Part shown: piece by piece, positions 1,095 through 59,400 of the stretch
How positions within the stretch are numbered: position 1 is the first letter of the stretch
Layout: each line of letters opens with the position of its first letter
Virus record (IMG/VR): IMGVR_UViG_3300037502_000519
Coordinates: 1-64,000 of that record
Source: a virus
DNA: 64,000 bases
Reading direction: 5' to 3' (one strand)
Program-made: the position numbers and the translations under genes
The notes under the pieces: model-generated
Database searches by the model: none
What the model saw: the letters and a program-made list of their open reading frames with translations, nothing else
What the model was told of the DNA's origin: nothing

Positions 1095-1136
1095 GTTGAA
1101 CTCTCCTTTGTGTTTTTTGGTAGTTTGTCAAATATT

Positions 1137-2702
1137 TTACTTCTTGTCAAACAGGACTTCTTCGTACAACTTCACCAGCATGTTGTTGTCCTCCACCCGC
1201 TCCGCCAAGCGCTTGAACATCTTGCGCTCGATTTCGCTCCCCTGTAGGTGAATGACGGTTACCTTGTCGCTTGTCTGGCCTTTGCGATCGGAACGTGCGC
1301 AGCACTGAATGTAGGTCTCTGTCGACATCACTGGCCCCCAGAACACCACCGTGTCAGCGGCAGTCAACGTGACGCCATGCGCTGCGGCCTGGGGCTGTAT
1401 GACCAGCACACGCGGGTCGGCCTCTTCCTGAAACTGCTTAAAGATACGCGTGCGTTTGGCTGGCGATATGTCGCCGTGGATGACCTCAGCAGAAGTGTTG
1501 TGGCTGAGCAGGTGCTCCTGGATCGTGTCGATGCTGTGCCGGTAGGGAGCGAACACCAACACCTTGCGCTGCGTCTCTTCCAAGATCTCCATGAGCACGT
1601 TAAGCCTAGCGCTACAGTCAAACGAAATGATCTCGCTGTTGTCTGTGTACGCTGCCCCTGCACTTATCTGCAACAACTTATTGACTTCAGCTGCTGCGTT
1701 TATTGCGGTTATCGTCTCGCCTGCGGCTGCGACCACCATGCGCTCCTTGAGCATGTTGTAGTACTTCTTCTGCTGCGGGGTGAGCGGTACGTCGCGGGTC
1801 TCGGTGATGACAGGCGGCAGGTCAAGGCACTGTGCTTTTGTGAACCGTATTGCTGGCTGCAGCGCTGTGTGCACCTTGTCCTGCGCGTCGAGCTTTGGCA
1901 ACCACTTGAACATCGTGACCTTGTTCATGGTGGCGTCGCGCCATGCCGTGTAGAACTTCGGCACACCAGAGGGGTTGACTAGCTTAGCCAGCCCATACGC
2001 ATCAAGAGGCGACTGCGATGCCGGGGTACCGGTCATCATCCACAGCAGCGAGTCAGGCTTGAGGATCTTGTTCAGCCCTTTCCAGCGCTTAGTCGAGACG
2101 TTCTTGTAAGCGTTGGCCTCGTCCACGATGATCAGATCAAACCGCCCATCGTTCACGATCTCGTCTGCTATGAGGTTGAGTCCGTCGTAGTTTGTTATCA
2201 CGAACTCGTATGCACCCTGCACCATCTCGATACGGCGTGCTGCTTGCTGATGGTGGGCAACGATGGCGCTACGGTGGATGATGCTGTTCTGTAGGTCTGC
2301 CATCCATGCCGAGTGCATGATTGACACCGGGCAGAGGATAAGGCACCGCCGCACACGCTTGGCACGCATGAGATAGTCCGCAGTCCACAGCGCCGCCAGC
2401 GTCTTGCCAGTACCCGGCTCAGAGAAAACGAACGCACGCTTGTGCAACGTGAGAAACGCGGCGGTCTCGACTTGGTGCTTCATGGGCTTGAATCGCCCAG
2501 GCCAGTCGTAACGTGCAGTGATCGGGGAGGGGACGTTCTTTACTCCTAAGTTCTTTAGGACACGAATCTCGTCCAGCCCCCACCGCACTGCAATCTCGTA
2601 CACCCCATCTTGTTCACCTACAACTGCCGCCTTCGGAATGATGCTGTATTTGCTAGGGTCGCGCGTTCGCAAGACGAGCGCCTTGTTATCAACTATCTGC
2701 AT
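1137..2702 (-). CDS. Superfamily 2 DNA helicase (SNF2/DEAD-like)
   Basis: An ATP-dependent DNA helicase or translocase of 521 residues. Motif I is FSEPGTGKT (about 93-101), motif II is IIVDEAN (D194, E195), and motif III is MTGTPAS. The second RecA-like lobe has VLVFAPYRHSI, VIHGDISPAKR and CARSDRKGQ, the last being the motif VI arginine region. The order is typical of SSL2/SNF2-like phage helicases that act in replication or recombination. It overlaps the following 72-residue gene by 14 bases and shares the operon with a RecB-like nuclease and DNA polymerase. I see no extra accessory domain. Confidence 0.92.
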   Translation of the reverse strand: MQIVDNKALVLRTRDPSKYSIIPKAAVVGEQDGVYEIAVRWGLDEIRVLKNLGVKNVPSPITARYDWPGRFKPMKHQVETAAFLTLHKRAFVFSEPGTGKTLAALWTADYLMRAKRVRRCLILCPVSIMHSAWMADLQNSIIHRSAIVAHHQQAARRIEMVQGAYEFVITNYDGLNLIADEIVNDGRFDLIIVDEANAYKNVSTKRWKGLNKILKPDSLLWMMTGTPASQSPLDAYGLAKLVNPSGVPKFYTAWRDATMNKVTMFKWLPKLDAQDKVHTALQPAIRFTKAQCLDLPPVITETRDVPLTPQQKKYYNMLKERMVVAAAGETITAINAAAEVNKLLQISAGAAYTDNSEIISFDCSARLNVLMEILEETQRKVLVFAPYRHSIDTIQEHLLSHNTSAEVIHGDISPAKRTRIFKQFQEEADPRVLVIQPQAAAHGVTLTAADTVVFWGPVMSTETYIQCCARSDRKGQTSDKVTVIHLQGSEIERKMFKRLAERVEDNNMLVKLYEEVLFDKK

Positions 2703-8282: not shown

Positions 8283-8902
8283 GTGTTCTTCTCCTTTAGT
8301 TTGGCTTCGATGGCAGGAAAAATGTCAGTCCAAAGCCTTCCTTCGTAATTTTTTAGCAAATCAACCATCTCACCATCCGTCAGCCCAACCCATTCTTTTG
8401 ATGGTGCGGGTAAATTAACCCTTGCAAACCTAACGCCAGCAAGAAAAGCAGCGTAGTTGTCGGACTGCTCTGCCGCAATTTCAACGTCACTTGATTCTGG
8501 CTCAAGCCAAAATAATTCTCCAATTTGCTCTGCCGTGTACTCAGTAAAATCGTTGCCGCCCCAATGGACAAGTGTTTTTCCAGAGGTAGAAGTAGCCCAT
8601 ACGGTGCAAAGTTCGTCAGTTTCAATACACCTCAAAAGGTTCCCACGGCGAAGTTTGATAGGCTCATGTCGATCTTTTGCCGTTTCATCGACACGTTCTT
8701 GCGATATGTCGCTGGCGTGTACAGGTGCGGTGTAAACATTCGTTTCGGAGTAATACAGTTTCCCTGCCATATCCAACCGCACTCTTATTTCTCCGTCTAC
8801 AAGCCACGCCACAGGCTCTTGCTTCTCTGCCTGCTCTGCATACTCTGGCGAAGCGCAGACGTAACATTCTTTAGACGTTAATCCATGTTCGCATTTAGGC
8901 AT
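8279..8902 (-). CDS. Mosaic protein C, 207 residues
   Basis: The ATG at 8902 follows a GGAG box (GCAAGGAGAAGAATCAATG). The N-terminus MPKCEHGLTSKECYVC is Cys/His-rich, as in a small zinc knuckle. Then comes the box YAEQAEKQEPVAWLVDG, which recurs in neighbouring genes; a beta-rich middle (RRGNLLRCIETDELCTVW, LVHWGGNDFTEY); and finally KEWVGLTDGEMVDLL with the tail IEAKLKEKNT. It thus joins two of the shared boxes in one protein. The -PVAW- stretch resembles a domain common in Betaproteobacteria phages. Function unknown. Confidence 0.75.
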   Translation of the reverse strand: MPKCEHGLTSKECYVCASPEYAEQAEKQEPVAWLVDGEIRVRLDMAGKLYYSETNVYTAPVHASDISQERVDETAKDRHEPIKLRRGNLLRCIETDELCTVWATSTSGKTLVHWGGNDFTEYTAEQIGELFWLEPESSDVEIAAEQSDNYAAFLAGVRFARVNLPAPSKEWVGLTDGEMVDLLKNYEGRLWTDIFPAIEAKLKEKNT

Positions 8903-9221
8903 TGATTCTTCTCCTTGCTCTGAAAATTCCACGCACATCAGGGTCGTTAACGCCAACGCACTTGTCACCCACTGAGTACTTGACGACCTTGAACTGCATC
9001 TCATGTACCAGACCGCAGTCGCAGCATTTCATGAAGTATTGCTCCGGGTCGGGGCAGACCCACTCTGACCAATCGCCCTCCTTCTCAACCTCATGCACGA
9101 TGAAGTCTTGCGGCAGACCTTCTTGCTTCTCTGCCTGCTCTAACTTTTGGCGCAACTCATCCCGCTGCGCTCGTATGCACTCGGGTCTGTCGCAGTAGTA
9201 ACTACAAGTATGTGTGTTCAT
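8895..9221 (-). CDS. Cys-rich mosaic protein D, 108 residues
   Basis: The N-terminus THTCSYYCDRPECIRAQRDE is closely related to that of the gene at 9992-10165, followed by the LEQAEKQE box. The C-terminal half has a second cysteine group (EWVCPDPEQYFMKCCDCG) suited to zinc binding. The ATG at 9221 overlaps the upstream gene by four bases. The homologous first 28 residues, joined to different ends, show recent modular exchange between these small genes. Biochemical role unknown. Confidence 0.75.
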   Translation of the reverse strand: MNTHTCSYYCDRPECIRAQRDELRQKLEQAEKQEGLPQDFIVHEVEKEGDWSEWVCPDPEQYFMKCCDCGLVHEMQFKVVKYSVGDKCVGVNDPDVRGIFRARRRINA

Positions 9222-9991: not shown

Positions 9992-10165
9992 TCACCAATT
10001 GTCATTGCGGTGTTGATCGTTATCGCGGTCAAGTTCCTCAACCAACTTGGCAACCGCCTCTCGCTCTGCTTGTATTACCTGCTCTAGCTTCTGGCGTAAC
10101 TCATCCCGCTGCGCTCGTACGCACTCAGGTCTCTCGCAGAAGTAACTACAGGTGTGAATGCTCAT
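9992..10165 (-). CDS. Cys-containing mosaic protein F, 57 residues
   Basis: A gene shorter than 60 codons. It translates to MSIHTCSYFCERPECVRAQR, a coiled coil (DELRQKLEQVIQAEREAVAK), and ends NDNW. Its first 29 residues are a paralogue of protein D (8895-9221), with three Cys conserved in spacing (C6, C10, C15). After LEQ the two diverge: here a short helix, there a second zinc-like domain. The ATG overlaps the stop of the LuxR-like gene (ATGA). Function unknown. Confidence 0.72.
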   Translation of the reverse strand: MSIHTCSYFCERPECVRAQRDELRQKLEQVIQAEREAVAKLVEELDRDNDQHRNDNW

Positions 10166-10494: not shown

Positions 10495-10609
10495 TGCTTG
10501 ATCCTTTCTGCCGCGCCAATGTACCCAAGGCAACCAGACGCTCTAACTGTTTACGGGCGGTCCGCTCAGAGATTTTTCTTTTCTTGGCATACTCCTTGAT
10601 GGTAGTCAT
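10328..10609 (-). CDS. Winged-helix DNA-binding protein, 93 residues
   Basis: The first 45 residues form an HTH (IKEYAKKRKISERTARKQLE) and wing (VALGTLARQKGSSNAYLYY) of MarR/Rrf2-like type. After that comes NWHDPFNKTK and an acidic tail. It overlaps the LuxR-like gene by 167 bases. The acidic tail past residue 60 is in the overlap and may be a by-product of that arrangement. The ATG overlaps the Rap1a-like gene stop by four bases. Likely a regulator. Confidence 0.72.
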   Translation of the reverse strand: MTTIKEYAKKRKISERTARKQLERLVALGTLARQKGSSNAYLYYEPKYEHRNWHDPFNKTKVARSLQKNEGQGAEVVEESGHVSDPEEVASHA

Positions 10610-10938
10610 GCGCCCTTCCCCCCTTTCGACTTATTCTTGCAAGGCCAGCGTTCTATCAACATCATGCCCACGAGAATGTCAGCAGGCAGGTTGCGGTTTT
10701 CAGCGTTCCTGCGTAGGTAGTCGATTGCCATGTCCTGTATCTGCCCTAGCGTGACATTAGACGGTATGCAGTGCGACACACTGTCACCATAGTCTGCAAG
10801 GCCAGCCAGATAGCCCAACCCATACATGCGTTTGCTAGTGCTCTCGCTAAGAAGGTCAGAGTACAGTTCATTGCCGGTGTGGAACCCTGCACTCGCCATC
10901 GCTGGTACGAACAACAAACTCAATAGTAGCTTTCTCAT
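10606..10938 (-). CDS. Exported Rap1a/Tai-family-like protein
   Basis: A 110-residue protein with a clear Sec signal peptide (MRKLLLSLLFVPAMASA, cleavage expected before GF), so it acts in the periplasm. The mature part fits the Rap1a/Tai pattern: NELYSDLLSESTSKRMYGLG, GYLAGLADYG, two Cys (CIPSNVTLGQ and RWPCKNK) likely to form a disulfide, and a helical region between. Rap1a/Tai proteins are immunity proteins against T6SS effectors or related periplasmic proteins. In a phage it might protect the infected cell or affect envelope enzymes (inference). AAAGGGGATCAT precedes the ATG at 10938. Confidence 0.75.
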   Translation of the reverse strand: MRKLLLSLLFVPAMASAGFHTGNELYSDLLSESTSKRMYGLGYLAGLADYGDSVSHCIPSNVTLGQIQDMAIDYLRRNAENRNLPADILVGMMLIERWPCKNKSKGGKGA

Positions 10939-11126
10939 ATGATCCCCTTTACGTATTTGTTCTTGACAGCAACGAAGACCTCCTTTGCCACGCCCTCTTT
11001 TATGAGTTCGTTCATCGCATGCAGGGCTGTGCTTTTGTGGCACGCCATACGTTCTGCGATCTGGGTAACTGTCAAGGGTGTCTTGCGTTGTGCCAAGTAA
11101 CGTTGCAGTTTCTCTTTTACTGTCAT
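10935..11126 (-). CDS. Small winged-helix regulator, 63 residues
   Basis: MTVKEKLQRYLAQRKTPLTV, then an HTH (TQIAERMACHKSTALHAMNE) and a short wing (AKEVFVAVKNKYVKG). Length and order fit a minimal MarR/IclR-type winged helix. It overlaps both neighbours by four bases. It is the third of four DNA-binding candidates encoded together here (10162-11425), a regulatory cluster. Confidence 0.75.
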   Translation of the reverse strand: MTVKEKLQRYLAQRKTPLTVTQIAERMACHKSTALHAMNELIKEGVAKEVFVAVKNKYVKGII

Positions 11127-11434: not shown

Positions 11435-12307
11435 TTAGAAATTAAAACGGTCTACGATGTCTGCCACCTGGGTGCGGATCTCTGTGCGTGCATCGACCTG
11501 CTTGCGCAGATCGTCTGTGTCCACGCTACGCAGGAGCTTCTCCAACTCCACCCGTGCGGCCTCGATGGTCATGTCATTGGTCACATTCAACGCCTTCAAG
11601 GCCTCGCACAACTCCAGCCCACCCTCGATCAACGAGGCGTGGATGCGCCCCTTCTTCTGCTTACCATTGACCTCCTCTACACGCAACTGCTTGAGCATAC
11701 GGTCTAGGTGCCCCTTGAGTCGGGCCTTGGCATCTGCCATAGCCGCCGACACGCGCTCGTCAGCGAGAGACGACAGCTTCTTCTGTAGCTCGGCCTGCGC
11801 CTCGTTGCCCACGTCCACACGGAAGTCACCGGCCTTGGGCACCGGCATGTAGTTCACACGGAACGAGAACTTACTGGCAACTTCTTGTGGGGCTGGGTAC
11901 TCGCTACGGTTAAACATGTCGCCCAGCGCCATAGCCTGCGCTGTGATCAACGAGGGGTAGACCTGCACGAACTCATTGACCATGCCCACGAACTCCTGCT
12001 CAAACTGCGTCATGCGCTGATTGAATGTCATAAAGTTCTTGGTAGGAAGCAGGCGGATGCCAGCGTCAGACCAGGGCAGGGTGTTCTCGTACACATAGGT
12101 ACGCGCCGCATTAACGTGTTGTTGTATGACCTCCAGTTCGTTACGACCTGCAAGCAGGTGCTTGTTGACCCGAGCGGCATCCTTCGCCGCCGCACGTTTG
12201 TTATGCACAACCTCATCAGTTGCCCCCTTGTCTAACTTGCGTGCGGTCCACATAGGTGCGCTGAACTCAACCAACATGGCGCAGGTATCAATATTGAATC
12301 GGCTCAT
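11435..12307 (-). CDS. DUF3150-like protein of the MoxR-VWA operon
   Basis: A 290-residue, strongly alpha-helical protein. N-terminus MSRFNIDTCAMLVEFSAPMW; the middle has LPWSDAGIRLLPTKNFMTFN, and long helices follow. In other phages and bacteria, helical proteins like this (DUF3150-type) lie beside a MoxR AAA ATPase and a VWA protein, as here. The assignment rests on that context and overall character rather than a catalytic motif. It is the last gene of the operon, 20 bases downstream of the 151-residue gene, with a GGAG site. Possibly a substrate or adaptor of the ATPase. Confidence 0.7.
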   Translation of the reverse strand: MSRFNIDTCAMLVEFSAPMWTARKLDKGATDEVVHNKRAAAKDAARVNKHLLAGRNELEVIQQHVNAARTYVYENTLPWSDAGIRLLPTKNFMTFNQRMTQFEQEFVGMVNEFVQVYPSLITAQAMALGDMFNRSEYPAPQEVASKFSFRVNYMPVPKAGDFRVDVGNEAQAELQKKLSSLADERVSAAMADAKARLKGHLDRMLKQLRVEEVNGKQKKGRIHASLIEGGLELCEALKALNVTNDMTIEAARVELEKLLRSVDTDDLRKQVDARTEIRTQVADIVDRFNF

Positions 12308-12326
12308 AGTTATCTCTCCTTTTTTA

Positions 12327-12782
12327 TTAAGACAAACGCAGAACTTCTATAGTGTTGTTATCTTCATCGATGGCGGTGAGTGACCCGCCCTTACCAAAGA
12401 CACGGTTTGCATACGACGATGTGGACGAACTAAGTTCTGCCGCCAGATATTTACCACCGGGTATGACGACATTCTGTCCGGGCTGAAGCGCATCAATAAA
12501 CGGGCGCACGTAGGCGGTCAGTTCCCCGTACTGGTACTTGAGGTTGCGCTTACGCATGTGCTTGACGGGCCTAACTTTTACGCGCAACGACTCACCGTGA
12601 CTGTGCTCATTGCCATCAGCGTCACGCACAAAGTACTCACAGCCCAGACTTGCCAGTACCCCCAACAACTCCGTCAGAGTTTTTTGTTTTAGTACGCTCG
12701 CTACTTTCACGCTTTTAATTGCGTCTAAGTTTTCTTTTGTAGGGGTGCGTTTTGTTTGTGTGAAAAGATTTTGCTGTTGCAT
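12327..12782 (-). CDS. Hypothetical protein of the MoxR-VWA operon, 151 residues
   Basis: The ATG at 12782 follows AAGGAGAACACC. The first 20 residues are polar (MQQQNLFTQTKRTPTKENLD). The centre has one Cys and acidic patches (GCEYFVRDADGNEHSHGES), then basic beta strands (LRVKVRPVKHMRKRNLKY) and a Ser-rich stretch (AAELSSSTSSYANRVFG). I do not recognise a family. The HTH-like region TELLGVLASLG ... LAAELSSSTSSYANRVFGKG could bind DNA, but this is weak. It sits between the VWA and DUF3150-like genes, so it is probably part of the same complex. Confidence 0.7.
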   Translation of the reverse strand: MQQQNLFTQTKRTPTKENLDAIKSVKVASVLKQKTLTELLGVLASLGCEYFVRDADGNEHSHGESLRVKVRPVKHMRKRNLKYQYGELTAYVRPFIDALQPGQNVVIPGGKYLAAELSSSTSSYANRVFGKGGSLTAIDEDNNTIEVLRLS

Positions 12783-12792
12783 GGTGTTCTCC

Positions 12793-13977
12793 TTAAGAGT
12801 AGATGCGCAGGGTTTTGCCGTGCGCGGGTTTGAAATGGTCATTGTTGATAACGCCCCACAACTCTTTACTGCACACCGATGATGGGCAGGCATCGATGTA
12901 TCCATCTGTCAGCCATATGGCCCCCGATGGTTTGTACTGCTTGGACTGCACATGCTGAACAACACACTGCGGAGATGTACCGCCGCCACCCTTCGGCGCC
13001 AGTTGTTGTGCGATGGCGTCGTACTGACCCTGCACAAACGTCTGCTCACCGCGCACCCGTGTGTCCCACCAGATGATGCGAACCAGCGTGGGGTTGATCT
13101 GCTTACAGATGTTGGCGATCTCACCGAAGATCACGGGATAGACACCAGCCATTGACCCGGATGTGTCGCAGTTGATGTGGATTTCCCCAGACGCCATGTC
13201 AAAGTGCGTGGGCATGATGATGCCGAGCGGCAGAAATCTACGGTTGGGTGGGTTGTAACGAGAATACTCGTCACCCGAAGAAACTTCTTCCCACCACTCC
13301 CGCAACGCGCTACGCCAGTCGGTCTCACGGTTTACACCAAACCCACTGAGAACATCACACTTGCCATCGGCACCAGCCAGTCGCTTCTGCACCATCTCGC
13401 CGTGGTTCATGGCGTCTTGTACTTCTTGGCGCAGTTCATCCATATCAGCATCGGCAGGCGCAGGCATGTGCGTATCCAACGTCTGTTGACTCTGGCTTTG
13501 ACTCTGGTCTTGGTTGTTGCGCAGGAGATCCTGCAACACATCGACAAACGACCGCCCGAAATACTTACTATTGACAAGGGGGGCAGGCGATGTGGGGCGC
13601 TCAACAAACGAGAACCCTGGGTCGGTCTGCTCGATGAACCCATTGACCACATAGTCCATCGCCTTGTTCGACTCGTTGGGATACTTCGCCACGATGTCGG
13701 CGTAGTCCAGGCAGTGACGCAGGCCAATGTGTAGCGCCTCGTGGATGTGCACATAGCGCAACTGCTTGCGTGTCTGTGCCAGGGCGAACGCCTCCCCGTA
13801 GAAAATATCCTTGCCATTGGTCGCGGCAGTCGGTATGTCCTTGACCTCCACGCCGCCCATCATCACTGCACCAGACAACACACTGAACTGTTTGTGATTA
13901 AGGATGTCAACGTTCACCGCCGTGATGCGTTGACGCGCAGTCATACGGTCCCACTGTGTCAGCATTTGGGTCGTCAT
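12793..13977 (-). CDS. VWA-like metallopeptidase-type protein (DUF2201 family)
   Basis: 394 residues. The N-terminal domain has an HExxH-type zinc motif, HIHEALHIGLRH (H79, E80, H83). A polar Gln/Ser linker (DQSQSQSQQ) follows. The C-terminal VWA domain has the MIDAS sequence CDTSGSMAG (D271-x-S-x-S275), a conserved Thr in GGGGTSPQC, and an Asp in WLTDGYID. DUF2201 proteins pair with MoxR ATPases and use the VWA domain to hold metal-dependent partners. The stop of the upstream AAA gene is 2 bases away, so both are co-translated. Confidence 0.92.
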   Translation of the reverse strand: MTTQMLTQWDRMTARQRITAVNVDILNHKQFSVLSGAVMMGGVEVKDIPTAATNGKDIFYGEAFALAQTRKQLRYVHIHEALHIGLRHCLDYADIVAKYPNESNKAMDYVVNGFIEQTDPGFSFVERPTSPAPLVNSKYFGRSFVDVLQDLLRNNQDQSQSQSQQTLDTHMPAPADADMDELRQEVQDAMNHGEMVQKRLAGADGKCDVLSGFGVNRETDWRSALREWWEEVSSGDEYSRYNPPNRRFLPLGIIMPTHFDMASGEIHINCDTSGSMAGVYPVIFGEIANICKQINPTLVRIIWWDTRVRGEQTFVQGQYDAIAQQLAPKGGGGTSPQCVVQHVQSKQYKPSGAIWLTDGYIDACPSSVCSKELWGVINNDHFKPAHGKTLRIYS

Positions 13978-13979
13978 GA

Positions 13980-15119
13980 TTACGCCTTGAAGAACAGACG
14001 GTTGTCGGTCAGCATCTCGCCAAACTTACTGACCGTGGTGTACAACCCCATCGACTCACTCTTGGACTCGGTCACACGGCGCAGGAACAACGACTGCACC
14101 TCCGGCTCAAGCCGTGCGATGTATGTTGTGTAGGCCTCGGCATCGTCACGCGTGCGTGTCTGGGCAATAGACCGGAACACGATGATCTGTTGTGCGATCT
14201 TGTTGCTTGGCACTGGCGCGTAGCCAGGATCGTGGAGCACCTCGGCATTGCGTGGCACCTGCGCACCGAACCGTATGAACGACATCAGGAGAGAGGCAAA
14301 TGCTTTGCCCACTGTGCCAGCAAGCGCTTGTTCAAGAGTGGTGCTATCGAATCCCCCCAGGGCGTAGGCATCGAGGATGTCAGAGGCCGCATGTAGGGTG
14401 CGCGGCGACGCATAGGCGTCTTGGACTTCTTGTGGATTGTAGATAGACGGGTTGTCTTTTGCTTGGTCTTTGCCTGCATATTTGCCTCCTGGTAGATAGT
14501 CAACGAACGAGTCCAACACCTGCGGGTTCTCCTCCACACAGGCGATCAGGATGGGGTTCAACCCCACGGGTATGGCAAAGTTATTGATCCACTCCTGGGC
14601 CGTAGACTTGCGCATCTTCACCACAAGCAACCTACTACGCAGGTGGGCGGCAAGGCTGTCACCTAGACCCTCGATGGCAAGGTTGGTCAGCCCGAACACC
14701 ACAGACCCCGTGGGCATGAAGAACGTACCGATACGGCGGTCATACATGATGGGCGCGATCATGTTCTTCACATACTGCGGCACCTTGGCAACCTCATCGA
14801 AGCAGACCAGCACAGGGCGCTCGCTGTCCCCGCCACGCTGGTTGGCAAAGCTCAGACCCATCCGCTCGTTAGGCAACTCACGAGACACCCCCCGCTCACG
14901 GTCGATGTCAGGCATGAAGAGCGAACCGTCAGACAACTGCGTGCAGTCGATGGGCGCGGGCTTGACGAAGTCTTTGAAGAACGGATCGGCGCTGAGCGTT
15001 TTGTGTAGCCATGTCTTGCCGGTGCCGTTCTCACCCATCACAAGGACGGTGCGCTTGTGGCCCACTGCCTTGATCAGATCGATAACTTGGTCGTGCGATA
15101 GGAAGTCTTTTGCATCCAT
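13980..15119 (-). CDS. MoxR-type AAA+ ATPase
   Basis: 379 residues. Walker A is MGENGTGKTWLHK (K35, T36), Walker B is RPVLVCFDEVAK (D108, E109), sensor I is in VVFGLTNLAI and an arginine-rich region follows (AAHLRSRLLVV). MoxR-family ATPases form hexamers that remodel or metallate partner proteins together with a VWA protein, here the next gene. It is the first gene of the operon, with an AAAGGAGAACACC ribosome binding site and a sigma70-like promoter 38-66 bases upstream of the ATG. Its role in phage growth is not known. Confidence 0.93.
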   Translation of the reverse strand: MDAKDFLSHDQVIDLIKAVGHKRTVLVMGENGTGKTWLHKTLSADPFFKDFVKPAPIDCTQLSDGSLFMPDIDRERGVSRELPNERMGLSFANQRGGDSERPVLVCFDEVAKVPQYVKNMIAPIMYDRRIGTFFMPTGSVVFGLTNLAIEGLGDSLAAHLRSRLLVVKMRKSTAQEWINNFAIPVGLNPILIACVEENPQVLDSFVDYLPGGKYAGKDQAKDNPSIYNPQEVQDAYASPRTLHAASDILDAYALGGFDSTTLEQALAGTVGKAFASLLMSFIRFGAQVPRNAEVLHDPGYAPVPSNKIAQQIIVFRSIAQTRTRDDAEAYTTYIARLEPEVQSLFLRRVTESKSESMGLYTTVSKFGEMLTDNRLFFKA

Positions 15120-15156
15120 GGTGTTCTCCTTTTTAGATTAACTGCACTGGTAAAAG

Positions 15157-15185
15157 ATTATAGAACAGAGTAAAACATTTGACAA
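15157..15185 (-). promoter_or_regulatory. Sigma70-type promoter of the MoxR-VWA operon
   Basis: On the minus strand, -35 TTGTCA (15185-15180), a 17-base spacer and a perfect -10 TATAAT (15162-15157). Transcription would start about 30 bases before the ATG at 15119. The -35 region lies within TTGTCAAA, a word that recurs in the divergent region at 21.25-21.42 kb. Confidence 0.8.
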
Positions 15186-15211: not shown

Positions 15212-16240
15212 TTACAGTTTGTTGTAGATAGTGTCATCGTAGGCATAGCCCCCACCGTACGCAGACTCCACCGGCTCACCGAATAACTCAGCGCGTACCA
15301 GCATGACGAAGGTCTCTGGGTCGGTGTACGCCATGTCGTACATCTCGGCCTTGGTCATGTCGTACAGGGTATGGTCGTTACTGGCAGTTTGTTTGTCATA
15401 CGACTTGTAGAAGGTGGACCACTTGTCCTCCTTGTACTCCGTCACCGTGGGGTCTCGGTCAGTGGGCAGGTCGTCCCACTCGATAGCAAGGCAGGCGTCG
15501 CGTAGGTTGAAAAGGCTGGGCAGGTGTAGCGTCTCAGCCCCACTGTGCTCGTGGTCGTAGCCGCATGACAGGTTGGTGCACTCGGGGATGATGTCGGTGT
15601 AGTTTGCCGTGTCAGTAAACACACCGCTGTCGTCTGGCAGGTACATGTTGGCCTCGTTCGTATTGAGCGCATCGGCTAGGGCCTGGGCAAAGGCATCGGA
15701 ACAACACCGTGACCAGCCCTGGTGTGTGATGACATCGGTTGACCCACGCCTGTCGAACGCAATGGCACGGTTGAACTTGTAGAGAATGTCGCCGTACTTC
15801 TTGAAGATATGCGATGACCCCAGACCGCCGCACTCCTCGGCACGGTGGAAGAAGTAACACCCAGGCACACCGGCGTCGATCATCTCCAGCATGACCCACG
15901 CACCAGCCGCATCGTCAGCACCCAGAGGCTCACCGTCGGTCTTGTAGTAGGTCTGCTTGGTGCGGTCGTACTTGATGCGTTGCTTGCCCTCGTTGCGGTG
16001 CACGGTGTCGGTGTGGCAGGAGAAGAGCGTCTTGGGTTGGCGTCCATCTGCGTGAGGCACCGTGATGACGAGCGCCATGTCGTCAATGTTCAGAGGGTCA
16101 TACGGCATGATGAACCGCTCGATCCACTGGACCTCAGACTTCGACCCGTGTGGGCGCTTATACCTGAGCATCTCGTGCAGTCGTTCGTCGTAGTATTCGG
16201 TGGATGTGGGGGTGGTTGTCACTGTGTTTGCCTTTGTCAT
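15212..16240 (-). CDS. M20/M28-like zinc amidohydrolase/peptidase
   Basis: 342 residues. The metal-ligand pattern of di-zinc exopeptidases is visible in order: FSCHTDTVH (H76, D78), LGADDAAGAW (D109/D110), RAEECGGLGS (E135, E136), AFDRRG (D163) and GYDHEHSG (H230/H232). This fits the M20/M28/M42 clan, which cleaves peptides or acyl-amino acids. A C-terminal extension of about 90 residues is acidic and Tyr-rich. No signal peptide is seen, so it acts in the cytoplasm. Such enzymes are uncommon in phages; the substrate is unknown. Confidence 0.87.
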   Translation of the reverse strand: MTKANTVTTTPTSTEYYDERLHEMLRYKRPHGSKSEVQWIERFIMPYDPLNIDDMALVITVPHADGRQPKTLFSCHTDTVHRNEGKQRIKYDRTKQTYYKTDGEPLGADDAAGAWVMLEMIDAGVPGCYFFHRAEECGGLGSSHIFKKYGDILYKFNRAIAFDRRGSTDVITHQGWSRCCSDAFAQALADALNTNEANMYLPDDSGVFTDTANYTDIIPECTNLSCGYDHEHSGAETLHLPSLFNLRDACLAIEWDDLPTDRDPTVTEYKEDKWSTFYKSYDKQTASNDHTLYDMTKAEMYDMAYTDPETFVMLVRAELFGEPVESAYGGGYAYDDTIYNKL

Positions 16241-16265
16241 GTTGTTCTCCTAAGTGTGTTGGTGA

Positions 16266-18044
16266 TTAACGCAATGCCTGAAAGGTGGCGTGGTAGAAGT
16301 AATGAGTACGGAAGTTGGTCATATAACGGAACGCTCTGGATGCACCCTCCATGTCACCATACGAACGCACGAGATCCCGCAGGGTAACGAAGCCAACGAC
16401 ACGCTCGTTGCCGTAGTCATCCATGAACCGTGGTGCGTTGAGATACGCCTCGGCAAATAACTCCGGCATGTCATCACCCCACACGATTGTCTGGTAGGGG
16501 AACCCTTCGACAGTATCAGGCGCAACCACTACGACACCCACCGCACTGTCTGCGTCTGACTCGTGGAAGTACACCTGACCCTCGGCATTGTTGATCACCT
16601 CGACGGCGTCATCGGTACGCATCCAATTGCCATTGGGGTCTTGCACGCACTCATCGATATGCCGATAGTCACCGTCATGCTCGCAGTACACGATGTCGTA
16701 GTAGTCAAGGTACTGGTCATGATAGTACTCGCCGTCGGTCTCACAGAGCACGCATGAGTCGCTCTCGATATGGTCTTCGTTGCCACGCCGTGAGTGTGCC
16801 CACAGGTATTGATCAGAACAGCACGAACCGATGCGTATGCCGTGGTAGTCAGAGTAGTTCATCTCATCCTCGTCCTCATCTGTGTGACGCCCACACACCT
16901 CGCACATGCCACCTATGCGATCCGTCAGCCCGTTGGTATTGGTCGCACTGCTCCTGTGCTCACCGTCGGAGTTGGCAACCAGCCAGTACCGCCTGCCATC
17001 GATCCTATGTATGCTCACATGCTTGTCATTGCCATCGATGTAGGGCATGACATACTGCCCGTCGTCGTGCTCAACCACAAGCAGGCGTGGGTCGTATTGG
17101 TACACAGACTCTCGCCGGTAGTCACGCTCCAGCAACATATCGAGCAACGCGTTGGACTCATCACCGTAGACGCGAACGAAGTGCGCCTTGGCAGGATCAT
17201 CAGGGAACGCAACGATGGCACGCGCCACCACACGGTCGTCCATCACGCGGTCAGTCAGCCACGCCAGTGCAAAGTCACCAGACGCATAGACCCGCGCTGG
17301 ATGTATCTCACTGTCGAACGAGTACACATCGCCCTGCATACACGAGGCCAGACCACACTCATCCTCACGGATACTGTAGATAGCCTCGAAGTCATCCGCA
17401 TCCTTGGACATATGGAAGTCCAACTGCTTGACGCCATCGGCAAGAGAACGGATCTGGTTTTGTGTCAGCGTCTCACCGTAGAACTGTGTGAGGTAGCGTC
17501 CGACCTTTGTGCGCACCTGACGGTCACGCTTGCCGTACTCAGGCGATGGGGTATAGGCCACCATCGTGGGGTCTTCGGTTGATATGTGTGGGAAGTGCCA
17601 CCACAGGTGCGGGTTGTCCTTGCCTATCTTGCGTAGCGTTGCGAGAAACGCAGGGGGTTTGTAGTACTCCGTCACGAAGCGTGCGTTCTCACGCCACACC
17701 CAGAACGCAGACTCAGGCATCGCCTCACGCATATACGCAATGGTGTTAGCGATACGAAACGCCGACCGCTTGTCACTGTCGTCGATGTCGGAGCCAGACT
17801 GATACGCCTCGCTGAGTTTGCTTGCGAAGTCATACCCGTTGAACCTCGGTGCGTCAGCGCCGAACACCGGCTCGCCGTCGACCTGTATTTCGTGGATCAG
17901 CTTGCCATTGCCAGGTTCGTTGCGCACACCGCCGTCGTCGTACAGATTACATATGCGCGTGAGGTGGTAAAGCTCGTCAGTGGTAACGGTTTGCAACACT
18001 TGTAGCAAAGCATCTTTGGAATCTATTTTAGACATGATGTCCAT
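16266..18044 (-). CDS. Large Cys-rich protein with zinc-binding clusters, 592 residues
   Basis: I do not recognise a family. The N-terminal 350 residues are mixed alpha/beta and acidic. The region about 385-500 has repeated Cys pairs (GMCEVCGRH, IGSCCSDQY, DSCVLCETDGEYY, IVYCEHDGDY) like a row of zinc ribbons. The final 100 residues include FPYQTIVWGDDMPELFAEAYL. The ATG at 18044 follows AAGGAGAAACAAC. It follows the tiny membrane genes and precedes the peptidase. It may bind nucleic acid or host proteins, but nothing proves this. A copy of the 20-bp near-palindrome lies near its 5' end (17990-18009). Confidence 0.8.
   Translation of the reverse strand: MDIMSKIDSKDALLQVLQTVTTDELYHLTRICNLYDDGGVRNEPGNGKLIHEIQVDGEPVFGADAPRFNGYDFASKLSEAYQSGSDIDDSDKRSAFRIANTIAYMREAMPESAFWVWRENARFVTEYYKPPAFLATLRKIGKDNPHLWWHFPHISTEDPTMVAYTPSPEYGKRDRQVRTKVGRYLTQFYGETLTQNQIRSLADGVKQLDFHMSKDADDFEAIYSIREDECGLASCMQGDVYSFDSEIHPARVYASGDFALAWLTDRVMDDRVVARAIVAFPDDPAKAHFVRVYGDESNALLDMLLERDYRRESVYQYDPRLLVVEHDDGQYVMPYIDGNDKHVSIHRIDGRRYWLVANSDGEHRSSATNTNGLTDRIGGMCEVCGRHTDEDEDEMNYSDYHGIRIGSCCSDQYLWAHSRRGNEDHIESDSCVLCETDGEYYHDQYLDYYDIVYCEHDGDYRHIDECVQDPNGNWMRTDDAVEVINNAEGQVYFHESDADSAVGVVVVAPDTVEGFPYQTIVWGDDMPELFAEAYLNAPRFMDDYGNERVVGFVTLRDLVRSYGDMEGASRAFRYMTNFRTHYFYHATFQALR
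17990..18009 (+). repeat. 20-bp near-palindrome, copy in opposite orientation
   Basis: Reads TTTGCAACACTTGTAGCAAA on the plus strand, so its reverse complement is the consensus TTTGCTACANNTGTTGCAAA with centre AG. It lies inside the start of the 592-residue gene. Confidence 0.6.
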
Positions 18045-21364: not shown

Positions 21365-21421
21365 ATGCTAAAAATATTTGTAAAAATAAAAATAGTTATT
21401 GTCAAATCTTTGACAAAGTAG
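21365..21421 (+). CDS. Possible leader peptide, 18 residues
   Basis: An AAGGAGGAAACGCCA ribosome binding site, one of the best in the window, precedes ATG at 21365. The product is MLKIFVKIKIVIVKSLTK, an amphipathic, Lys/Ile-rich helix like a membrane-active peptide or translational leader. The last codons overlap the perfect dyad. Too short to be sure, but the strong site argues for translation. Confidence 0.45.
   Translation: MLKIFVKIKIVIVKSLTK
21399..21416. promoter_or_regulatory. Perfect 18-bp dyad (operator-like)
   Basis: TTGTCAAATCTTTGACAA: arms TTGTCAAA and TTTGACAA around TC. Either strand contains a TTGTCA or TTGACA -35-like hexamer. The half-site TTGTCAAA also appears at about 21256 and at the promoter of the MoxR operon. 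Candidate operator, or an RNA hairpin at the end of the leader peptide. Confidence 0.55.
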
Positions 21422-53496: not shown

Positions 53497-56400
53497 ATGC
53501 GCACAATTCAAGTTCCTGGCTACGGCCCAGTTAAGTTCCCGGAAAGCATGTCAGATGAGGAAATTGCGCTTGCAATTGAAGAAGACATACTGCCGAACAT
53601 AAAACCGCCCAAGGAAGGTATTGGGGCTGCGTTTACCGGTGGCCTAAAGCGGATGGCGTCAACAGCGGGTACTGGCCTAGAAGCGCTACTGTCCCCTGAA
53701 GAAGCAGCTAAACAAGGTCTTGCTAGATCTGAAGCCATTGGACGAGAGTACGCCCCCGGTGCTAGTTTAGATGCGGTAAAGAAAGCATACGCTGAACGTG
53801 GGCTGCTAGGTGGTGCTGGTGAAGTTATTAGTCAGATCCCCACTGCCCTGGCTGAGCAGGTTCCGCAGATTGCTGCCACGTTAGGTAGCGCCAAGCTCGG
53901 CGCTATGGCTGGTACGGCGGTCATGCCTGGTGTTGGTACGCTCATCGGCGGTGGTATTGGTGCTGTTGCGCCATCCCTGTTACAGCTTTTTGGTTCCAAC
54001 ATTGAGCGTCAAGCCGCAGAAGGTGCGCCTGAGATTTCTCGTGGGGCTGCTGCCGCTGCTGCTATTCCTGGTGCCGCGCTTGAAGCCGCATCAACTTTTG
54101 TGCCGTTGGGCAAATCTATAGTAGGGAAACTACTAGGGCCAGCCGCAGAAGAGTACTTTAAACGTGGGGCAACGGAAGCCACCGAAGCGGTGGCCCAAGA
54201 AAGCCTGAAGAAAGTTTTAGCAAAAGGCGCGGCAGTCGGTGCTGCCGTAGAGATCCCCACAGAGATTACCCAGCAGATGCTAGAGCGTCTACAAGCGGGA
54301 CTACCCCTTACTACTGATGATGCGTTAGCAGAATACGGTGAAGCCGCGTATGGCGCTGGGCTTGTGGGCGCTCCGTTTGGTGCGGCTGGTCGTGCAGGCC
54401 AGCGGTCTATTGCTCGTGGCGAGATTGAGGCAGAAGAAGAGAAGGTTAGGTCAGAAGCGCTTGCCCGTGAAGCCGAAGAAGAAAAAGCACGGCTCGTATC
54501 GCCGGAGTACCGGCAAGAGTTGAACGCCCAGATGGTAGAGAAGAAAGACCAACTTCGGCAGTTGGAAGCGCTTCTTAAAGACAAGACCGTAGACGAAGAC
54601 GTACGGACAGAAGCCAAAGATACTGCAAAGACGTTGCGCAGAGAGCTTGGTGAACTCGACGCAAAGATGAAAGCGTCGATGAAAGAAGCCGGTATAGCCC
54701 CGACTATGGAAGGCACGCTGGCACGTAAACAGCGTGTAGAAGCCCAAGAACAAACCGTCACAGACGAGTTTGGCAATATTGTCAAGGTTAAAGGCAAACC
54801 CATTACCGCAGAAGAAGAGGCGGAAGGGTACGAGCGGCAATCCGAAGCTGTGCTTGCAGACTTTAGGGAGCGTGAAGAAGCCCTTGAGCGTTTACGGGAG
54901 AAGGAACGCCAAGAAAAAATCAAGAAAGACGAAGAACTCCAGGCTGGCGTAAAGACTTTCTTACAACAAACAGAGGAGATGGCGGAACTAGAACCCGGCG
55001 CTGCTGTTGCTACCCGTGAGTTGGCAGAAAAAAGGCGTACAGAAAAAGATCAAGCCGCCGCCCAAGAGATGACGCTGAATCGTATCCAGCTTGTTCTGGA
55101 TAAGTTTGGTTTACGCGCTGCTGGTGTGCCGCAAGAACAGCGTCTGGACATTGAAAACAAGATAAACGAAGGCCGGGTAGACCGGACTGTTACTAACGTA
55201 CTTGGAATAAAAGGTTTAGGTGGGCGTACTGTCTCGGCGACTGATGCACTGCCAAACATTCAAACGCGTATCCAAGAGTTAGAAGACCGGCGGCAAAAAG
55301 CGATTACCACCAAAGACCCGTTGATGTTGGATAACGGACAGCTTACGGACAAAGGGTATGACCTTGTTGCAACAGAAGCAAAACTCAACGAGCTTCGCCG
55401 TTTACAGACTGTTGCGCAGTCCCAGGCCCCCACAGAAACGCCTACTGAAACCGGTATGGTTGGGCAGTTAGAAGCTGCTACCCAGGCCAAGGCAGAGGCT
55501 TTGGCAGTACCAGAAGCGCAGGGGCTACCCAAGTCAGCCTACGCAGGTCGTATAGATGGCGCTAACAAAGCGGCGGGGCGTGCGTTTACCGACCTTCTGT
55601 CCTATATGGACGACTACAGAGCCGGTCGGTTCTTTGGCGAGGGCGCTGCTCCTGGGCAGCTTGGGCTGGCAAGTTCTACGCGTGAGGGTTTACTGACCCA
55701 ATCTAATGAGATGCGTAAGAACGTTGTTGACGCAGTGATCCAAGAAGCCGCGCTCATGCGTGGACAGCAGGGTTTACGCCCTCTTACCCGTGACGAAGCC
55801 ATTGGCCTTGGTGTTAGGGTTGATGAGATTCTGCAAGAGATCATTACGCGCAGTACCGCGTTACCCAGCCGCGCGTCTCTAAAAGAAGTCACGATCTCCC
55901 CTGCACAGATGCGGGGTACAGAGATCATTAAGTCTGCCAAAACTGCTTTGGTTGACCCGCGCCCCCTGGCTGAGCGCCAGTTTGGCAACCCACGCCGTGC
56001 TATTGAGGTGCTTGCAGAGGCCATTAAACAGGCAAAAGAGCAGACCGTAGCGGAAGGCAAACGCACTGTTCGGGCTGAGCGCCCAGTTCTGCGTCAACAA
56101 TTCCAGGGGTACCAGCCAGCAGAAAGCCGGTTTGCCCAGGGCGACCGTCTTGTAGATCAAATTGCCCAGATTCTTCGTACGGCTGATGCCGATTCTGCAT
56201 TTGCTAAGACGCTTGATGATGCGGCAACCCTGATTGCTAACGAAGATGTGAACCCCACATTTTTAAATACCGTAGATGAACAGGTGGGCCGCATCCTACG
56301 TGGCACCGATAAGCCTGATGATTCTGCTGCGCTGATTGCCGACATCCAAAAAGACATGGACCAGCAGCGTGCGCTACGTGCGTATGTTGAAGATACTGGT

Positions 56401-59400
56401 GCCCAGGCCGAGATGTTCCCTGAGACAAAAGGCACCATACGCGCCACCCCCGCGCAGTTCCAGCGTTTGCAGAAGTCTGCCAAGGTCGAGAAAGAACGCG
56501 CTGCGATTGCCCGAGAAAAGGGTGCGGCGGCACAAACACGCAAGGCGATGATTGAGGCTAAGCGTGAGGTTGACAAAGAAGCTGCGGCAATGGATGACAA
56601 GATCGCAGACAAAGAGCGGTCGATTCTGAAGAAGATTAATGACGCCATTCTTGAGATGGCAGGCCCAGAAACAAAGGGCAGCTTTAGCGCCAAACAAGAA
56701 GAAGTGACGCGTGCACTACAGTTCTTGACCCGTGATGAGTCTGCTACGGCTGCTAAGTTAGCCGCTGCTGACAAAGACATCCAGGCAGAAATCAACGAAC
56801 TGAACAAGATGCGTGAGCGTGCTGCGCAATCAAAGCGTGGGTCGTTAGATCAGCGTGTTGCTGCCACCAACATACAGAAGCAGCGCGGCATGATTGCCAA
56901 GGCCAAAGCCGCCCTTAAAGACGCTAAAGAAAAGTCTGACAAGGTCAAGCGTGAGCGTGAGGAAATGATCCAACGCGGCGCGCGGCTGGAAGGCCAGCGG
57001 TTTATCAAGAAATCACGGGAAGAGCTACTAAAAGAATTGCTTGCCGCTAGGAAAGCTAAGAAACCTGGCGAAAAGATTAAGCGCCCATCGTTGTACAAAA
57101 TTGTTCCCATAAAGAACCAGGCCGATTTAGAAGAAGAACTTCGGCAACAACACCTAGATGAGATCAAAGGTCGGCGGGCGCGTGCAATGTCTCCTGGCGA
57201 AGTTATGCTCAAGACGCGGACGGAAGAAGAACAGGCCCGTCGAGAAGCACGCGATGCTACCACTCGCCTAAACAAGTTTACAAAAGACGTACAGTCCGGC
57301 AAAGAACCGCAGGATTTTGCTAAGTACAAAGAACTTAGTCAGGCTGTGGACCGTGCACGCGCTAAGTTAAAAGACCTGCGCGACAACATCAAGCTGATGA
57401 AGGCGGTGGACTACGATCCAGATAACGTCCCGCGTAACGCCCCGATCCGCACAACAAAAGGCCCGGTAAAAGAAACTGAACGGCGCTACACAACCGACCA
57501 GATCTTTGACCTCATGGGTGAGCGTGGGCGGATGACAGGCGGCAAGTCGTACTCTGTCGATGATGTGCCTGACTTGCGTGTGGGGGATACAGAACCGACT
57601 GGTGAGATTGACGTTGCTGCGGCTAAAAAGTATCTGGCAGACGTCAAGAAAAAGGCCACAGAACGCGGGATAAAGTTTAACTACTACCCGCTAACCGAAG
57701 TGTTGCCGCCCCAGATCCGGCAGGCCATTGAGGCGCTGGGACCATACGCCAAGTACGCTAAAGGCGGCGTCATGCCCAATGGTGAAGTCTTTGTTATCAT
57801 CGACGGGCATAGCACGCTGAAAGAACTAGAAGGCACCGTTGCACACGAGCTTATCGGGCACGTTGGCTTTGAAGGTTTTGTTGGCGAGCAGGGCATGAAA
57901 GATCTTCTTAAGAAGGTCGAAAATGCTTTTGGCAGCGTGTTTAAGATGGCGGATGCTATCGGCGTTGGGCGTCAGGCAGAAGACGCCGCAGTTGCTTTGT
58001 GGAAAATTGGCGCTGACAACGACCGTGCAAAACTGCAAGCGCTACGCGAAGCCATTGCCTACACGATGGAGAAGCGGGTTGACCAGTCGTTCTTAGAAAA
58101 AGCTAAGCGCTGGATGCAGGAGCTTGTTGGCGCGTTCCGGTCTGCGTTGAAGAAGCTGGGGTTAGCTGACACGTCTAAGATGACGACGTCCGACTTGTTC
58201 TACCTGATGAAACAGGCAGACGCTAACTTCAAAGCCAACAAGCCTATCGCTACGTTTACCCCTGATGGGTATGCGTCGTTTAGCGTTAAAAATGTTGACA
58301 ACAAAGGCATAGCATCCCTGATTGCCCAGCGTGGTACGGCGTTTGATAAAGCCAAATCTTTCGGCATGGGTATCACCGGCTTGCCGGGGCGTGTGCGTTT
58401 CCTAGATCGGTTTGCGGCTTTGGATGCCCTCGTCAAACAAGGCGTGACAAGGGGGATCATCTCCTCCCTAAAAGCAATGGACGTCATGTACTTCAACCGC
58501 ATGGCAGACCAGCGTAACAACTTTGTTGCCCAGTTTGCTACAAGTGGGGTTGGCAAGATCACCAGCAAAAACGGTGAGCTTATGTATGATGGCGGTGAAG
58601 GGCCGGGTCTGCGTGATGTATCTGCGGCGCTTGCTAAATCTGGTCTGCCGTCTGACAAAGTGGAAGCTGAATTTACCTCCTACTTGGTTGCCCTCCGTGC
58701 AGATCGGGTTGGCGTTAACAAGCTGGACTTTACGGGTAAGCGCGTTACTGAGAAAGAAGTTAAAGAGACGATTGCCAAATACTCTGGCAGCGACCCCGCC
58801 AGCCTAGCGTTCAAAGAAGCACGGAAACTGTACCAGCAGTACAACGACAACTTGGTAGATTTTGTGGTCTCATCTGGCGCTCTGTCTGCGGAAAAGGGTG
58901 CGGAACTAAAGAGCTACAAAGACTACGTTCCGTTCTACCGTAAGCGTGGCAATGAAGTCACGATGGAGATCCTAGGTGAAGGCTTCATCCGTATTGGCGA
59001 CCTGAAGAACCAGCCCTACCTACAAGAACTGGTCGGTGGCAAGACAGAAATCCTGCCGGTGTTCACCAGTGCGCTGACCAACACGTCGACTTTGGTAGAT
59101 ATGGCGCTGAAGAATATGGCTACGCGCAACACCGCGTACGTCATGCAGGATCTTGGCATTGCCCGAGTCTACGAAAAAGCTGGCAACGCCAGCCCTAACG
59201 TCCTTCGGTTTAAGCGCAATGGGAAAGAGTTCCACGCCACCATAGACACCGAGGCTATGGAGAAGTTGTTTGGCGACATTCCCGTCGAGTCGGTTATCCA
59301 GGGGCTAGAAGGCACGAAGGCGGTTGTCAACGCAGGCGTGAAGCTGTTGGGTTTGCCTGCCAACTGGCTGCGCAAGTTCGTCACACGTGACCCCCGCTAC

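What the first reader, a model, noticed from the sequence alone, without database searches (positions are those of the whole stretch)
11435..15185. Phage-borne MoxR ATPase / VWA metallopeptidase operon with its own sigma70 promoter
A complete AAA+ ATPase (Walker A K35, Walker B D108-E109), a VWA protein with both HExxH (79-83) and MIDAS (271-275), a helical DUF3150-like protein and a 151-residue unknown are co-directional and nearly contiguous, behind TTGTCA-17-TATAAT. In bacteria MoxR-VWA pairs act as chaperones or maturation machines. A phage keeping all parts must gain from it, for example by activating a virion or host enzyme, or as defence or counter-defence.
Basis: partly seen in the sequence, partly recalled or inferred. 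Interest (0 to 1): 0.7.

Follow-up and report, generated by a model that had tools for sequence, protein, structure and literature searches.

The report
Phage AAA-ATPase, VWA-peptidase, DUF3150 machine
This virus carries a three-gene protein-remodelling machine (an ATP-driven motor, a metal-binding adaptor that is also a probable protease, and a third protein of unknown shape) that travels as a fixed set through phages, plasmids and some bacterial genomes; its job is untested, but the fixed trio with its own switchable promoter makes it testable.

Summary
The operon is real and as described. AAA+ (13980-15119), HExxH+VWA (12793-13977), a 151-aa protein (12327-12782) and DUF3150 (11435-12307) run co-directionally behind TTGTCA-17-TATAAT. 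Catalytic residues are invariant: HExxH plus D108 and full MIDAS in 30/30 VWA relatives, Walker A/B and sensor 1 in 27/27 ATPases. A phage MoxR/VWA-metallopeptidase pair is not new (N4 gp24/gp25; group 2.2 jumbo phages). Beyond that: DUF3150 is a fixed third partner. All 56 loci found through a DUF3150 query with enough flank carry the trio on one strand, in shuffled gene orders, across phages, Burkholderiales plasmids and several bacterial phyla; more distant DUF3150 proteins lack it. The 151-aa gene is not core: seen in about 35 viral loci only, fastest-evolving, swapped as a cassette in a near-identical phage. The promoter overlaps a conserved dyad, TTGTCAAA-NN-TTTGACAA, also present at the phage's divergent control region, so it is probably a regulated early/middle promoter. 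The module lies in the replication arm, upstream of PolA. Best reading: an AAA+/VWA/zincin remodelling-or-cleavage machine acting early on a DNA-metabolism or host client, with DUF3150 as adaptor or client. Function is untested.

The parts
13980..15119 (-). AAA+ ATPase (MoxR-like, N4 gp24-like, PHROG 1297)
   Evidence: Walker A/B, sensor 1 and R240 invariant in 27 relatives; PHROG 1297 at 8e-33; hhalign 94.7% to RavA
12793..13977 (-). zincin-like HExxH domain + VWA/MIDAS domain (DUF2201_N + DUF2201; N4 gp25-like, PHROG 1314)
   Evidence: Pfam above cut-off; active residues invariant in 30/30; model pLDDT 81 with VWA and selecase fold matches
11435..12307 (-). DUF3150 protein, the fixed third partner; predicted long helices with a few strands
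   Evidence: Pfam DUF3150 above cut-off; trio in 56/56 loci; model pLDDT 73, no PDB match at E<=0.001, 8 viral relatives by fold
12327..12782 (-). 151-aa accessory protein; optional, fast-evolving, swapped as a cassette
   Evidence: about 35 viral loci, none of 15 plasmid/genome loci; 81.7% nt against ~98% flanks in the nearest relative
15157..15185 (-). promoter TTGTCA-17-TATAAT
   Evidence: same or similar hexamers in L003, L013, L015, L016, L018, L023
15168..15185 (-). half-degenerate copy (3 mismatches) of the dyad TTGTCAAA-NN-TTTGACAA overlapping the -35
   Evidence: 20 sites (<=3 mismatches) in 6.3 kb of module-upstream DNA against 34 in 479 kb elsewhere, 30 non-redundant loci
21399..21416 (.). 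perfect copy of the same dyad in the divergent control region between the two arms
1125..1142 (.). third copy of the dyad (3 mismatches), upstream of ORF 690-1094

Best explanation
A mobile three-protein remodelling machine. Inferred mechanism: the AAA+ protein forms a ring that is docked to its target by the VWA protein, whose MIDAS metal is completed by an acidic residue of the client or partner; ATP hydrolysis remodels the client, and the fused zincin-like HExxH domain may cut it. DUF3150 is the constant adaptor or the client itself. The set is expressed early or middle from a sigma70-type promoter overlapped by an operator shared with the phage's central control region, and acts on a replication/recombination or host takeover protein rather than in virion assembly. 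Shown here: gene set, intact catalytic residues, fixed linkage, co-divergence, promoter/dyad conservation, location. Inferred: complex formation, protease activity, client, timing, regulator.
For: Trio complete in 56/56 loci with >=3.5 kb on both sides of DUF3150, always one strand, shuffled gene orders; the same trio on Burkholderiales plasmids and in Dechloromonas, Desulfosarcina, Armatimonadota, Cloacimonadota and Tannerella MAG contigs, and on pCAR1 as CbbQ-type AAA, DUF3150, and VWA with an aligned HExxH. Pairwise divergences of the three proteins correlate after removing PolA divergence (partial r 0.61-0.72; with the 151-aa protein about 0 or negative). Catalytic residues invariant. PolA downstream on the same strand in 47/49 loci; Hjc-like endonuclease, PD-(D/E)XK exonuclease and SNF2 helicase nearby; terminase and portal on the opposite strand. 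N4 gp24/gp25 are middle transcripts (PMC4193335). MoxR-VWA pairs remodel or activate clients: RavA-ViaA (PMC10585395), NorQD (PMC13036017), CbbQO (PMC4660213) (abstracts).
Against: No biochemical test. The client is unknown and gene position does not prove a role. More distant DUF3150 proteins in Desulfobacterota and Tunturi_3 phage have no VWA found beside them and, where an ATPase was tested, a classic AAA (PF00004), so DUF3150 is not bound to this machine throughout its family. N4-like phages carry the AAA/VWA pair with no detectable DUF3150. The DUF3150 fold is unresolved (pTM 0.43). Most of the 56 loci are related phages and all were found through DUF3150, so the count is not 56 independent events. 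hhalign of our DUF3150 and VWA profiles to the pCAR1 proteins is weak (15.6%, 13.6%).
Confidence: 0.5

Rival explanations
1. Virion assembly/processing chaperone-protease, as proposed for group 2.2 jumbo phages (PMC7824862): the AAA/VWA pair assembles tail or head proteins and the metallopeptidase trims them.
For: Same architecture proposed for this by PMC7824862, which cites the ATV tail chaperone pair; a second structural module lies near gp24/gp25 homologues in RPP1 (PMC4193335).
Against: Here the module is in the replication arm, opposite to terminase, portal and structural genes, with PolA downstream in 47/49 loci; the trio also occurs on conjugative plasmids that build no virion.
Confidence: 0.2
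2. CobS/CobT-type cobaltochelatase subunits that boost host cobalamin synthesis (PMC8651126).
For: AAA + VWA/MIDAS pairs of tailed viruses are read this way in PMC8651126.
Against: No Pfam CobT or CobN match in the 65-kb record; the VWA protein matches DUF2201 instead; the fused HExxH domain and the DUF3150 partner are unexplained by chelation. CobN could be host-encoded.
Confidence: 0.07
3. Defence or counter-defence module, with the variable 151-aa protein giving specificity.
For: 151-aa gene swapped as a cassette; module shared by phages and conjugative plasmids, which both meet host defences; MoxR-vWA conflict systems exist (PMC7159879).
Against: Only weak generic ATPase hits in PADLOC; the core proteins are under purifying selection (dN/dS 0.02-0.22 against L013 and L003); the 151-aa gene is absent from many trios, and its dN/dS of 0.33 fits recombination rather than positive selection.
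Confidence: 0.18

Closest known systems
N4 gp24/gp25 of Schitoviridae (PHROG 1297/1314)
   Same: Homologous AAA+ and HExxH-VWA pair, adjacent or nearly so, near replication genes, middle-expressed in N4
   Different: No DUF3150 detectable in the N4-like loci read; about 24-28% identity
MoxR-vWA/metallopeptidase pair of group 2.2 jumbo phages (PMC7824862)
   Same: AAA+ plus VWA with N-terminal metallopeptidase
   Different: Described as a pair for virion assembly; no DUF3150 partner mentioned in the passage read; no sequence comparison made here
pCAR1 ORF101-103 (IncP-7 plasmid; PMC2642839 says ORF100-103 genes are conserved in R478, Rts1, SXT, R391)
   Same: AAA, DUF3150, VWA in one row; VWA protein also has an aligned N-terminal HExxH
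   Different: AAA is CbbQ/NorQ-type with CbbQ_C; VWA protein is 604 aa; hhalign to our DUF3150 and VWA weak
RavA-ViaA of E. coli
   Same: AAA+ core aligns at 94.7% probability; VWA MIDAS region aligns, weakly
   Different: Alignment covers only the ATPase core and the VWA domain; the HExxH domain did not align and there is no DUF3150 gene beside them

Membership tests
MoxR AAA+ family | Walker A, Walker B, sensor 1 intact | tested here: met
MoxR AAA+ family | match to Pfam AAA_3 (MoxR) profile | tested here: not met
   no match at E<=1 in own record, while the profile gives matches in 14/14 control genomes
MoxR AAA+ family | profile similarity to an established member over the ATPase core | tested here: met
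   RavA 94.7%, pCAR1 CbbQ-type 95.2%; other AAA+ clades were not compared, so this shows AAA+ kinship more than subfamily
MoxR AAA+ family | VWA partner gene adjacent | tested here: met
VWA/MIDAS protein | DxSxS, T, D and VWA fold | tested here: met
Zincin-type metallopeptidase (DUF2201_N) | HExxH plus conserved third acidic residue | tested here: met
   H79/E80/H83/D108 30/30; Pfam above cut-off; that D108 is the third ligand is inferred
Zincin-type metallopeptidase (DUF2201_N) | proteolytic activity | not testable with these tools
   needs biochemistry
DUF3150 | Pfam PF11348 above gathering score | tested here: met
   25.7 against 24.9 bits, a narrow margin
CobS/CobT cobaltochelatase | CobT profile in the VWA partner; CobN in record | tested here: not met
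   CobN may be host-encoded
Known anti-phage defence system (PADLOC) | match to a defence profile | tested here: not met
   only weak generic ATPase hits

The most novel reading that the evidence does not exclude
DUF3150 is a dedicated, previously unrecognised adaptor or substrate of AAA+ machines: its gene is fixed beside an AAA+/VWA-zincin pair across phages, plasmids and several bacterial phyla, and more distant members occur near classic AAA ATPases, so the trio would be a general mobile-element remodelling protease controlling replication or establishment of incoming DNA.
Probability: 0.3. Interest if true: 0.75.

Novelty: new variant of a known kind. Interest (0 to 1): 0.5.

Why it matters
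AAA+/VWA pairs in phages have been given incompatible roles (virion chaperone, cobalt chelatase) in the papers read, without a test. A fixed third component, a shared operator-like dyad and a swappable fourth gene give a defined, testable unit that also sits on conjugative plasmid backbones. No paper in the held library mentions DUF3150; that is a limit of this library, not proof that nothing is published.

Tried and rejected
Strict MoxR (AAA_3) and CobT/CobN membership: no match. Defence by profile: none. PDB relatives by sequence profile: none useful for VWA or DUF3150; hits of the 151-aa family are designed helical proteins over about 30 residues and were discarded. DUF3150 fold match in the PDB: none at E<=0.001. 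The 151-aa protein as a core part: rejected. Its diversification by positive selection: dN/dS 0.33 does not show it. DUF3150 in N4-like phages: not detected with the session profile. A 271-aa HExxH ORF beside a remote DUF3150 (L119) as a VWA relative: rejected (hhalign 0.2%). PHROG 1314's label 'HNH endonuclease' does not fit HExxH-VWA and was not followed. Scans with mixed-distance alignments failed for lack of conserved stretches.

Full report
WHAT IS THERE. The window is 64,000 bases of a 65,038-base IMG/VR virus record. On the minus strand lie an AAA+ ATPase (379 aa), a protein with an HExxH domain and a VWA/MIDAS domain (394 aa), a 151-aa protein and a DUF3150 protein (290 aa), separated by 2, 10 and 19 bases. 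Pfam places the second in DUF2201_N and DUF2201 and the fourth in DUF3150, all above cut-off, the last narrowly. The ATPase has no Pfam match above cut-off but matches PHROG 1297 over its length. The VWA model (pLDDT 81) resembles solved VWA domains, Midasin MIDAS among them, and one small metallopeptidase, selecase.

THE PAIR IS KNOWN. Homologues occur in 243 (VWA) and 224 (ATPase) phage records, including relatives of N4 gp24/gp25, which N4 transcribes as middle genes (PMC4193335; PMC2784036). A MoxR/vWA-metallopeptidase pair was described in group 2.2 jumbo phages with a proposed virion role (PMC7824862), and AAA/VWA pairs of tailed viruses were read as CobS/CobT (PMC8651126).

DUF3150 IS THE FIXED THIRD PARTNER. 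A DUF3150 scan of IMG/VR found 228 relatives, 80 fetched; a genome scan found 11. With four plasmid loci and three other phage loci, all 56 loci with at least 3.5 kb on both sides have the trio on one strand; over all 86 complete loci the orders count 33, 26, 26 and 1. These loci were found through DUF3150 and many are related, so this is strong linkage but not 56 independent events. Pairwise divergences of the three proteins correlate after PolA is removed (0.61-0.72), those of the 151-aa protein do not. The same row of three is on plasmid pCAR1 with a CbbQ-type ATPase, and its VWA protein also carries an HExxH aligned to ours, though with low overall probability. Counter-example: distant DUF3150 proteins in Desulfobacterota (6 of 197 sampled genomes besides the Desulfosarcina found before) lack MoxR and VWA neighbours; where an ATPase lies nearby and was tested it is a classic AAA. 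None was found in 273 other genomes of the class of Dechloromonas, so the gene is rare in chromosomes there.

THE 151-AA GENE. It belongs to a family seen in about 35 viral loci and none of 15 plasmid or genome loci. Between this phage and its nearest relative the operon is about 98% identical except in this gene, 81.7%, with borders close to the gene ends. This is best read as exchange of an allele; no function is indicated.

PROMOTER AND OPERATOR. TTGTCA-17-TATAAT or a close variant recurs upstream of the module in relatives, even where the upstream gene differs. It overlaps a dyad, TTGTCAAA-NN-TTTGACAA. In 30 non-redundant loci there are 20 sites (<=3 mismatches) in 6.3 kb around the module start and 34 in 479 kb elsewhere; the Fisher p-value there is not independent because the phages are related. 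The window's own copy is half-degenerate, but a perfect copy lies in the divergent control region. A regulated early or middle promoter is inferred; no regulator was identified.

LOCATION. PolA lies downstream on the same strand in 47 of 49 loci with room; SNF2 helicase, PD-(D/E)XK exonuclease and Hjc-like endonuclease are near. Terminase, portal and structural genes are on the other strand.

HOW IT LIKELY WORKS. By analogy with RavA-ViaA, NorQD and CbbQO, an AAA+ ring remodels a client presented by the VWA protein through its MIDAS; the fused zincin may cleave it; DUF3150 is adaptor or client. Complex, cleavage and client are inferred. Position argues for a role in replication or host takeover over virion assembly; plasmid carriage argues the same way. 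Chelatase membership failed, strict MoxR profile membership failed though similarity to the RavA ATPase core holds, defence profiles failed.

VERDICT. A known kind of pair, in a variant with a fixed third partner and a shared operator-like dyad, function open.

Noticed in passing
window 12327-12782 versus L011/L013: 151-aa gene is a sharply bounded divergent cassette (81.7% nt) inside an otherwise ~98% identical operon.
   Followed up: yes
window 21399-21416, 15168-15185, 1125-1142: Dispersed dyad TTGTCAAA-NN-TTTGACAA, a likely phage-wide operator; the regulator was not identified.
   Followed up: partly
window 15212-18044 (-): M28-like peptidase and a 592-aa unknown protein directly upstream, found in only 5 of 82 related loci; 59 of the loci carry a different 326-aa unknown family upstream of the module.
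   Followed up: partly
window 8895-9221 and 9992-10165 (-): Two small ORFs with alike starts (HTCSYxCxRPECxRAQRDELRQKLEQ), apparent paralogues, in a hypervariable stretch.
   Followed up: no
window 53497-60837 (+): 2,446-aa protein with an LPD38 domain (E 2.8e-27) and a weak virion RNA polymerase domain match below cut-off.
   Followed up: no
window 10606-11043 (-): ORF matching Rap1a immunity proteins (E 6e-15).
   Followed up: no
PHROG 1314 (window 12793-13977): Family labelled 'HNH endonuclease' that matches an HExxH-VWA protein; the same label stands in many phage records.
   Followed up: partly
L119-L122: Distant DUF3150 proteins in Desulfobacterota lie near a classic AAA ATPase rather than MoxR/VWA.
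   Followed up: partly
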